The notes under the pieces: generated by a model | Database searches by the model: none | What the model was told of the DNA's origin: nothing | The model's input: the letters and a program-made list of their open reading frames with translations, nothing else | Translations under genes and position numbers: made by a program | In this document: in pieces, positions 18,196 through 20,596 of the stretch | How positions within the stretch are numbered: position 1 is the first letter of the stretch | How the letters are laid out: every line of letters begins with the position of its first letter | Assembly: GCF_000218625.1 (NCBI RefSeq) | Contig: NC_015672.1 | Span: forward strand, 1,364,001-1,428,000 | Origin: Flexistipes sinusarabici DSM 4947 | GTDB taxonomy: Bacteria > Chrysiogenota > Deferribacteres > Deferribacterales > Flexistipitaceae | Reading direction: 5' to 3' | DNA length: 64,000 nt

Positions 18196-18220
18196 TTGTA
18201 TACTGCATATTGTATACAAT
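18196..18220. promoter_or_regulatory. paired palindromic operator-like sites
   Basis: TTGTATAC (18196-18203) and GTATACAA (18212-18219) are inverted repeats with an 8-bp spacer. The right site lies within the perfect 12-bp palindrome ATTGTATACAAT (18209-18220). The two GTATAC cores are 14 bp apart. Confidence 0.45.
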
Positions 18221-18347: not shown

Positions 18348-18376
18348 TTGACATTTATAAAACATTGTATTAATCT
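18348..18376 (+). promoter_or_regulatory. symporter operon promoter
   Basis: TTGACA (18348-18353), a 17-bp spacer and TAATCT (18371-18376). Predicted transcription start is near 18383, exactly where the structured leader begins. Confidence 0.65.
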
Positions 18377-18382
18377 TTTTAC

Positions 18383-18467
18383 AGGACTTGGGATTATGGA
18401 TGCTGTGGTAATAATATAAAAAAGGAGGTGAAAGAAAAATTTAAGTCCTTTTTAATTAGCATCCATA
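18383..18467 (+). ncRNA. structured 5' leader, candidate H-type pseudoknot
   Basis: Helix 1 pairs AGGACTT (18383-18389) with AAGTCCT (18443-18449), 7 bp. Helix 2 pairs TATGGATGCT (18395-18404) with AGCATCCATA (18458-18467), 10 bp. Because the arms alternate, both can form together only as a pseudoknot; otherwise they are competing folds. The central loop carries AAAGGAGGTGAAAG, a near-perfect anti-16S match with no start codon at useful distance. A 7-codon frame MDAVVII overlaps the first arm of helix 2. No known riboswitch class was recognised. Confidence 0.5.
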
Positions 18468-18508
18468 CAATTTAGGTTTTTTTTAAAAACGCTCAGAGAG
18501 GTGTATTT

Positions 18509-18769
18509 ATGGACAAGGAAGCTATGGAGCAATATTGGAAACGAAACCTGAAAATTATTGGCTGGTTGCTGGCAATTTGGTTTCTTGTTTCTTATGTTGC
18601 AGGAATTCTTTTGGTTGATGTGTTAAATAACATTCACATCGCAGGTTTTCCACTTGGATTTTGGTTTGCACAACAGGGCTCAATAGTCATTTTCATCATC
18701 CTGATTTTCACCTACTGCAAATTGATGAACAATCTGGACAGAGAATTTGACGTTCTGGAAGAAGAGTAA
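18509..18769 (+). CDS. DUF4212 sodium/solute symporter small subunit
   Basis: An 86-residue protein with two TM helices (about 15-36 and 48-70). The conserved short N-terminal helix MEQYWKRNLKIIGWLLAIWF and FPLGFWFAQQGSI loop define DUF4212 (TIGR03647-type). It is found as a partner of one subgroup of SSS-family symporters, encoded immediately downstream. The gap to the symporter is 12 bp. The start follows AGAGAGGTG. Probable role: stabilising or regulating the symporter. Confidence 0.93.
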   Translation: MDKEAMEQYWKRNLKIIGWLLAIWFLVSYVAGILLVDVLNNIHIAGFPLGFWFAQQGSIVIFIILIFTYCKLMNNLDREFDVLEEE

Positions 18770-18781
18770 GGGGGTTAGTAT

Positions 18782-20596
18782 ATGGGTACACAAATATGGA
18801 TATATTTCTTTGTCATCTTAACATTTGGAATTTACGTTGGTATTGCTATATGGGCCCGTGCAGGCAGTACTAAGGACTTTTATGTTGCCGGCGGCGGTGT
18901 CGGTCCTGTTGCAAACGGGGCTGCAGTTGCGGCGGACTGGATGTCAGCAGCATCTTTTATATCGATGGCAGGTCTCATTGCTTTTATGGGTTACGGCGGC
19001 TCTCTCTTTCTTATGGGTTGGACCGGCGGTTACTGCCTTCTGGCTATGTTGCTTGCACCTTACCTTAGAAAGTTCGGTCGCTACACGGTACCGGATTTCT
19101 TTAAGACCCGTTATTATTCAAAAACAGCCTCAGGAGTTGCAGTACTTTGTCTTCTCATCGCATCACTTACCTACGTTATCGGACAGATGACAGGTGTTGG
19201 TGTTGCATTTTCAAGATTTCTTGAAGTTTCAAATACACTTGGTGTTATTATCGGTATGGCGGTTGTTTTTGTTTATGCGGTTTTGGGCGGAATGAAAGGT
19301 ATTACTTACACGCAGATTGCCCAGTATACGGTAATGATTATAGCTTACACGATACCGGCTATATTCATATCGATCACACTTACAGGCAATCCTCTTCCGC
19401 AGTTCGGACTTGGTTCCGAATTCGGGGACACAGGTTCCTACATGCTGCAAAAGCTTAATGAGGTTGTGACCAGTCTCGGTTTCAGTGAATACAGTACAAA
19501 CTTCAGATTCAGCAAGCTTAACATGTTTGTATACACACTGTCGCTGATGATCGGTACTGCAGGTCTGCCTCACGTTATTATGCGTTTCTTTACTGTGGCA
19601 AGTGTTAAGAATGCACGTTTGTCAGCAGGATGGGCGCTTATTTTCATCGCAATACTTTACACCACTGCTCCTGCTGTTGCTGCCATGGCTCGTTTGAACA
19701 TCCATGCAACAGTTAACAAAGCAGTAATGAAGGAAAACGGTAATTATTTCGCACCTGAGAACAGCATTAAGTATGAAAACAGACCGGAATGGATGAGAAA
19801 CTGGGAAGTTACAGGTCTTATACAGTTCAAGGACAAAAACAACGACGGACGTATCCAGTATTACAACGGCAATTCCAACGACCAGCAGTTTCTGAACAAC
19901 GCTGCTGCCGCCGGCTGGGAAGGCAATGAATTAACAGTTAACCGCGATATTATGGTTCTTGCCAACCCTGAAATTGCAAATCTCCCCGGCTGGGTAATCG
20001 GTCTCGTTGCTGCAGGTGGTCTCGCTGCGGCACTTTCAACAGCTGCCGGTCTGCTTCTTGCGATATCTTCAGCTATATCACACGACCTTGTTAAAGGTAT
20101 GATAAAGCCTGATATCAGTGAAAAAGGAGAGCTCCTTACCGGTAGGATTGCCATGGCTGCGTCTATTATATTCGCAGGTTACCTTGGTCTGAATCCTCCT
20201 GATTTTGCTGCCGGTACTGTTGCTATAGCATTCGGTCTTGCAGCCAGTTCGCTCTTTCCAGCTATTATGATGGGGATATTCAGCAAAACGATGAACAAAG
20301 AAGGCGCAATAGCCGGTATGATCGCTGGTATTGGTGTTACAATGATTTACGTTTTTGCACACAAGGGTATATTCTTTATACCAGGCACCGAATTCCTCGG
20401 TCTTTTCGGCGGCAATGCAAGATTCTTCCTTGGAATCGAGCCTAACGCTTTCGGTACTATAGGTGCGATTGTTAACTTCCTGGTAGCTTTCGGAGTTAAA
20501 AATATGACTCAGAAAGTACCTGATGATATTGCGGAAATGGTTGAAAACATCCGTTATCCCAAAGGTGCAGGAGAAGTAACATCTTCACACCATTAA
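18782..20596 (+). CDS. sodium/solute symporter, SSS family (VC_2705-type, ActP-like)
   Basis: A 604-residue inner-membrane symporter with 13 or so TM helices. The N-terminal STKDFYVAGGGVGPVANGAAVAADWMSAASF segment contains the sodium-site helix of SSS transporters. GTAGLPHVIMRFFT and AAALSTAAGLLLAISSAISHDL are further family motifs. Pairing with DUF4212 identifies the acetate/short-chain monocarboxylate-like subgroup. A hydrophilic insert (about 315-395) separates two TM bundles. Codon choice is richer in C/G than neighbours, which fits high expression. The exact substrate is not provable from sequence. Confidence 0.92.
   Translation: MGTQIWIYFFVILTFGIYVGIAIWARAGSTKDFYVAGGGVGPVANGAAVAADWMSAASFISMAGLIAFMGYGGSLFLMGWTGGYCLLAMLLAPYLRKFGRYTVPDFFKTRYYSKTASGVAVLCLLIASLTYVIGQMTGVGVAFSRFLEVSNTLGVIIGMAVVFVYAVLGGMKGITYTQIAQYTVMIIAYTIPAIFISITLTGNPLPQFGLGSEFGDTGSYMLQKLNEVVTSLGFSEYSTNFRFSKLNMFVYTLSLMIGTAGLPHVIMRFFTVASVKNARLSAGWALIFIAILYTTAPAVAAMARLNIHATVNKAVMKENGNYFAPENSIKYENRPEWMRNWEVTGLIQFKDKNNDGRIQYYNGNSNDQQFLNNAAAAGWEGNELTVNRDIMVLANPEIANLPGWVIGLVAAGGLAAALSTAAGLLLAISSAISHDLVKGMIKPDISEKGELLTGRIAMAASIIFAGYLGLNPPDFAAGTVAIAFGLAASSLFPAIMMGIFSKTMNKEGAIAGMIAGIGVTMIYVFAHKGIFFIPGTEFLGLFGGNARFFLGIEPNAFGTIGAIVNFLVAFGVKNMTQKVPDDIAEMVENIRYPKGAGEVTSSHH

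What the first reader, a model, noticed from the sequence alone, without database searches (positions are those of the whole stretch)
18383..18467. Candidate pseudoknot leader RNA upstream of the DUF4212/SSS symporter
The transcript predicted from TTGACA-17-TAATCT begins exactly at arm 1 of two interleaved helices (7 bp and 10 bp, both perfect). Their order (1, 2, 1', 2') gives an H-type pseudoknot or two exclusive folds. The central loop carries an orphan strong Shine-Dalgarno (AAAGGAGGTGAAAG), and an 8-T run follows before the true ribosome site. This looks like a regulatory leader, possibly ligand- or ribosome-responsive, and matches no riboswitch class I know.
Basis: partly seen in the sequence, partly recalled or inferred. 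Interest (0 to 1): 0.65.

Follow-up and report, generated by a model that had tools for sequence, protein, structure and literature searches.

The report
Start-less ribosome-docking leader of symporter operon
The conserved part of this symporter gene's leader RNA is not the predicted knot but a strong ribosome-binding sequence with no start codon after it, kept across two bacterial phyla upstream of the same transporter genes, probably to dock a ribosome subunit and protect the messenger RNA from decay.

Summary
The pseudoknot has no comparative support. It is present only in a near-identical relative (G001) and absent from the congener G002 and from all other Deferribacterota; no Rfam family matches. 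What is conserved is the start-less SD. In this leader it is AAAGGAGGTGA (18421-18431), complementary to the 16S 3' end, which this genome encodes. Orphan GGRGG lies about 60-90 nt upstream of the DUF4212 start in 15/15 leadered Deferribacterota loci, and in the -160..-50 region of 57/70 Desulfuromonadia loci. In the latter the conserved block is GAAAGGAGG: AAAGGAGG occurs in 35 leaders against 0.6 expected, on the sense strand only, with flanks diverged to randomness. A start codon at normal spacing is no commoner than chance. Sequence and layout match STAB-SD, the start-less SD of Bacillus thuringiensis cry3A that binds a 30S subunit and blocks RNase J. The genome encodes a full-length RNase J homologue, RNase Y and RNase E/G. 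Best reading: a STAB-SD-like 5' mRNA stabiliser of the symporter operon. The stabilising function is inferred, not shown.

The parts
18348..18376 (+). Predicted promoter TTGACA-17-TAATCT; the same layout lies upstream of the relatives' leaders
   Evidence: prediction only
18383..18389 (+). Helix 1 5' arm AGGACTT, at the predicted transcript start
18443..18449 (+). Helix 1 3' arm AAGTCCT
   Evidence: helix not conserved in G002 or other genera
18395..18404 (+). Helix 2 5' arm TATGGATGCT
18458..18467 (+). Helix 2 3' arm AGCATCCATA
   Evidence: not conserved
18421..18431 (+). Orphan (start-less) Shine-Dalgarno AAAGGAGGTGA, 11-nt complement of the 16S rRNA 3' end: the conserved core of the leader
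18446..18453 (+). TCCTTTTT, which could mask the orphan SD through AAAAAGGA (18419-18426) in competition with helix 1
   Evidence: species-specific
18396..18419 (+). Possible 7-codon upstream ORF (MDAVVII) ending just before the orphan SD; not conserved as a peptide
   Evidence: sequence compared with relatives
18477..18484 (+). Run of eight T; a T-rich stretch is kept in the genus and in families f7 and f8; not part of a recognised terminator
18498..18503 (+). True SD GAGGTG of the DUF4212 gene
18509..18769 (+). DUF4212 / sodium-substrate symporter small subunit (PF13937, TIGR03647)
18782..20596 (+). VC_2705-family sodium/solute symporter large subunit (TIGR03648, SSF)

Best explanation
The functional core of the leader is a strong Shine-Dalgarno sequence with no start codon. 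It pairs with the 3' end of 16S rRNA and docks a 30S subunit about 40 nt from the predicted 5' end and about 85 nt upstream of the true start codon. The docked subunit, helped in this species by 5'-terminal base pairing, shields the symporter mRNA from 5'-to-3' decay by RNase J. It thus works like STAB-SD of cry3A and the aprE and gsiB leaders. Shown: presence, conservation, strand bias, complementarity to the encoded 16S end, lack of a start codon, RNase J homologue in the genome. Inferred: transcription start, 30S binding, stabilisation, and any role of the helices.
For: AAAGGAGGTGA occurs four times in the genome: twice as the antisense of the 16S 3' ends, once inside a coding frame, and here. 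Most other AAAGGAGGT sites examined are followed by a start codon 4-10 nt on; this one is not. Orphan GGRGG is in 15/15 leadered Deferribacterota DUF4212 loci, against GGAGG in 2/58 control leaders from two of these genomes. Desulfuromonadia: GGAGG in 50/70 against 10/56 control leaders, matches of at least 8 nt in 46/70 against 3/56; AAAGGAGG in 35 against 0.62 expected with flank identity at random level; sense only, CCTCC 2/70. The conserved block is GAAAGGAGG, with flanking information near 0. ATG at spacing 4-10 in 2/57, below the 11.6% expected. Genomes with the element encode RNase J, and own also RNase Y and E/G. Published STAB-SD: an SD-like sequence that does not direct initiation, binds 30S and blocks RNase J1 (PMC4113751); a strong SD even without a start codon stabilises mRNAs (PMC3997798).
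Against: No transcript, ribosome-binding or half-life data. The orphan SD is not predicted to be especially accessible (mean unpaired 0.32-0.38, true SD 0.40-0.45) and in this species can pair with TCCTTTTT. Protection by STAB-SD is best known in Bacilli that lack RNase E, whereas this genome has RNase E/G. Alphaproteobacterial (Thalassospira) DUF4212 loci have RNase J but no strong orphan SD. Conservation fits any ribosome-docking role, not stabilisation alone.
Confidence: 0.5

Rival explanations
1. The orphan SD is a ribosome loading or standby site: 30S docks there and moves or relays to the weaker true SD (GAGGTG), raising translation rather than stability.
For: The orphan SD (11 nt) is stronger than the true SD (6 nt) in this leader and several relatives; spacing of 60-130 nt is kept; the stretch between them is often U-rich or weakly folded.
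Against: In Desulfuromonadia the true SD is itself strong (often GAGAGGAGG), so help is not obviously needed; the distance is long for a standby site.
Confidence: 0.17
2. A species-specific translational or stability switch: helix 1 (AGGACTT/AAGTCCT) competes with AAAAAGGA/TCCTTTTT and so exposes or hides the orphan SD. The pseudoknot would be a local elaboration on a conserved docking site.
For: The competing helices share 18446-18449; fold z about -2.5; a 6-8 bp SD-masking helix of different sequence can be drawn in the Deferribacter-like leaders L010 and L012.
Against: No covariation; congener G002 folds worse than chance (z +1.8) and lacks both helices; no shared fold in Desulfuromonadia.
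Confidence: 0.13
3. The SD belongs to a translated leader peptide with an unusual start, and its translation regulates the operon.
For: Short frames can be drawn: MDAVVII ends just upstream here; GTG overlaps the SD in many; the three f10 loci have ATG or GTG at normal spacing.
Against: No start codon at 4-10 nt in the 8 strongest Deferribacterota cases; 5/57 with any start codon and 2/57 with ATG in Desulfuromonadia; a frame-shifting gap between L010 and L012 and no conserved peptide.
Confidence: 0.08
4. A ligand-binding pseudoknot riboswitch.
For: The two helices are real and uncommon for one leader (12/3000 shuffles).
Against: Not kept in the congener or any other genus, no covariation, no Rfam match.
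Confidence: 0.03
5. GAAAGGAGG is a DNA site for a transcription factor, not an RNA element.
For: The operon has upstream regulatory-looking TTGTATAC repeats, so transcription factors probably act here.
Against: Sense strand only, downstream of the predicted promoter, and the conserved letters follow the 16S complement, extending on different sides in the two phyla.
Confidence: 0.05

Closest known systems
STAB-SD of Bacillus thuringiensis cry3A (5' mRNA stabiliser)
   Same: Strong SD in the 5' UTR, no start codon, complementary to the 16S 3' end, roughly 100 nt upstream of the gene; RNase J encoded.
   Different: Gram-negative phyla (Deferribacterota, Desulfuromonadia) and a symporter operon; conserved with one gene family across phyla; up to 13-nt complementarity (G002); RNase E/G also present; stabilisation untested.
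Bacillus subtilis aprE and gsiB leaders
   Same: 5'-terminal stem plus strong ribosome binding; some Deferribacterota f5 leaders start with a 5' hairpin and this leader's helix 1 starts at the predicted +1.
   Different: In this leader the 5' helix is long-range and species-specific, and the SD has no start codon.
SD-containing H-type pseudoknot riboswitches (preQ1, SAM-II type)
   Same: Interleaved helices near an SD.
   Different: Here the SD is not the gene's SD, arms are not conserved, and no Rfam model matches.

Membership tests
STAB-SD 5' mRNA stabiliser | SD-like sequence in the 5' UTR that does not direct initiation (no start codon at working distance) | tested here: met
STAB-SD 5' mRNA stabiliser | Complementary to the 3' end of 16S rRNA | tested here: met
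   GGATCACCTCCTTT found at both rRNA loci of the genome; 11-nt match here, 13 nt in G002
STAB-SD 5' mRNA stabiliser | Lies close to the (mature) 5' end of the mRNA | tested here: inconclusive
   41 nt from the predicted start; no mapped 5' ends
STAB-SD 5' mRNA stabiliser | Host has the 5'-3' exoribonuclease RNase J | tested here: met
   Full-length homologue, 388.9 bits over positions 3-543 of 546, slightly under the 400-bit curated cut-off; 587-610 bits in six Desulfuromonadia
STAB-SD 5' mRNA stabiliser | 30S binding raises mRNA half-life | not testable with these tools
   needs toeprint and half-life assays
H-type pseudoknot riboswitch | Both helices conserved with covariation in relatives | tested here: not met
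H-type pseudoknot riboswitch | Match to a known riboswitch family | tested here: not met
Leader-peptide attenuator | Conserved start codon and peptide after the SD | tested here: not met
Intrinsic-terminator attenuator | G+C-rich hairpin directly followed by a T run | tested here: not met
   helix 2 ends 9 nt before the T run

The most novel reading that the evidence does not exclude
Symporter (DUF4212-SSS) operons of Deferribacterota and Desulfuromonadia share an ancient, gene-family-specific start-less SD element that docks free 30S subunits, so that the lifetime of the carbon-uptake mRNA reads out the pool of idle ribosomes. This would be a ribosome-sensing stabiliser in Gram-negative bacteria, deeply conserved although all surrounding leader sequence has turned over.
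Probability: 0.2. Interest if true: 0.75.

Novelty: new variant of a known kind. Interest (0 to 1): 0.52.

Why it matters
Start-less SD stabilisers are known from a handful of Bacillus mRNAs. A sequence-identical block conserved upstream of one transporter family across two Gram-negative phyla, with everything around it randomised, would show that mRNA protection by ribosome docking is an old and widespread mode of control. Because members occur in Desulfuromonadia, the class that holds the genetically tractable Geobacter, it is testable, and it bears on substrate uptake in metal-reducing bacteria. It also corrects a tempting pseudoknot reading.

Tried and rejected
Rfam scans of the window and of 35 relatives' loci: nothing relevant. 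RNAalifold on 37 main-group Desulfuromonadia leaders gave no pairs, the 13-member paralogue group only 5 weak pairs at about -0.4 kcal/mol, and the 7-member group mainly an invariant hairpin at the true SD. Accessibility of the orphan SD was not informative. A wide genome-contig search gave mainly Bacteroidota and Proteobacteria, where orphan SDs are near shuffle level, with three Desulfobacterota-type exceptions that led to the Desulfuromonadia set. Terminator attenuation, leader peptide and DNA operator were considered and found weaker. A CsrA-type site (GGA motifs) was considered; it would not explain the extension of conservation along the whole 16S complement, but was not tested further. 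No paper in the held library mentions DUF4212.

Full report
What is there. The window lies at 1364001-1428000 of a single 2,526,590-bp chromosome; that length agrees with my memory of Flexistipes sinusarabici, and the genomes sharing its order fit Deferribacterota. The leader precedes DUF4212 (TIGR03647, symporter small subunit), a VC_2705-family sodium/solute symporter (TIGR03648, 804 bits), a small membrane protein and a cNMP-binding/CBS/DUF294 protein. An additional 8-bp helix between the SD and TCCTTTTT competes with helix 1.

Is the pseudoknot more than chance? Within this one leader an interleaved 7+10 pair appears in 12/3000 shuffles; over 64 kb, shuffles yield 0-4 such pairs and the window has four places. 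Comparative evidence is decisive. Of the two congeners, G001 is nearly identical in this stretch and uninformative (its substitution at 18467 turns a U-A into a U-G pair). G002 (80% identical protein) has lost the first arm and the second helix yet keeps AAAAGGAGGTGATC, the T run and the true RBS. Forcing the structure on six aligned leaders gives both-sided changes at shuffle level. Fold z-scores of relatives scatter between +1.8 and -3.2.

What is conserved. In the six-leader alignment the only long invariant block besides the true RBS and start codon is AAGGAGGTG, the orphan SD. In this genome the 11-mer AAAGGAGGTGA is found four times: two are the antisense of the 16S 3' ends, one is inside a coding frame and one is here. 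Of 30 AAAGGAGGT sites inspected, most are ordinary SDs with a start 4-10 nt on; few intergenic ones lack it. All 15 Deferribacterota leaders extracted have GGRGG at -61 to -90. In family f2 the symporter follows another gene closely and no such leader exists, as expected of a 5'-UTR element.

Reach. Three Desulfobacterota-type hits in a broad search led to the class of L111: 67 of 146 genomes carry DUF4212. Of 70 upstream regions, 57 have GGRGG and 50 GGAGG at -160 to -50, distinct from the true SD nearer the gene. The conserved block is GAAAGGAGG, the 16S complement. It is sense-strand only, while the 40-nt flanks are at 25% median identity; AAAGGAGG occurs in 35 leaders with 0.6 expected. 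Controls: 56 intergenic leaders from four Desulfuromonadia genomes contain an SD match of 8 nt or more in 3 cases, against 46/70. A start codon at working distance is not enriched, and is if anything rarer than chance. Bacteroidota, Vibrio, Halomonas and others are near background.

Mechanism. A sense-strand, start-less 16S complement near the 5' end, kept while all else turns over, most simply docks 30S subunits. The known precedent is STAB-SD of cry3A, which does not direct initiation, binds 30S and stops RNase J1 (PMC4113751); a strong SD without a start codon is named as a common stabilising determinant in Bacilli (PMC3997798). RNase J, Y and E/G homologues are encoded here, RNase J in the six sampled Desulfuromonadia, and not, by strong match, in the sampled Vibrio, Halomonas, Thauera, Belliella and Dechloromonas genomes. 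Stabilisation itself, 30S binding and the transcription start remain inferred. The helices may add 5'-end protection or modulate SD exposure in this species only.

Verdict. Observation confirmed; pseudoknot/riboswitch reading not supported beyond the species pair; the orphan SD is a real, widely conserved element, best explained as a STAB-SD-like stabiliser (about 0.5), with ribosome standby as the main rival.

Noticed in passing
window 18196-18219: TTGTATAC and TTGTATACAA repeats about 130-150 nt upstream of the promoter; similar TGTATAC repeats lie upstream of the symporter promoters of several relatives (for example L005, L009, L010, L012, L016, L020, L024) and of a short-leadered gene in L026: probable operator of a shared regulator.
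   Followed up: partly
window 18354-18370 and aligned promoters: The promoter spacer is conserved (AAAACA-T/A-TGTA-T/C) across several Deferribacterota families, forming ACAWTGT just upstream of the -10: possible operator inside the promoter.
   Followed up: no
L165, L170, L182, L185, L188, L190, L191 (upstream of start): In this Desulfuromonadia group the true SD sits in an invariant small hairpin AACCTGAAGGAGGTT, and the upstream leader has a conserved ACGGCATCGGAG...CCGGGC element: looks like translational control.
   Followed up: partly
L197, L202, L206-L208, L211-L213 (upstream of second DUF4212 paralogue): Conserved G+C-rich block AACCGCCCGC...GGGCAGGGG...GGCAGCC-CCCC directly before GGAAAGGAGG, which could form two short consecutive hairpins; no Rfam match for L197 or L207.
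   Followed up: partly
L021, L022, L025: In the f10 family (same phylum) the upstream GGAGGTGA is followed by ATG/GTG and TGGCC...GGCCA with a short ORF, then a GAGGTGCA...TGCATCTC-like hairpin in L021 and L022: a different leader type.
   Followed up: no
L246 about 1500; L252 about 1500: Two other start-less AAAGGAGGT sites in the same genome, one about 400 nt upstream of a frame starting MARTKRFKINGDVGYYHVISRTVGG, which resembles REP-associated transposases.
   Followed up: partly
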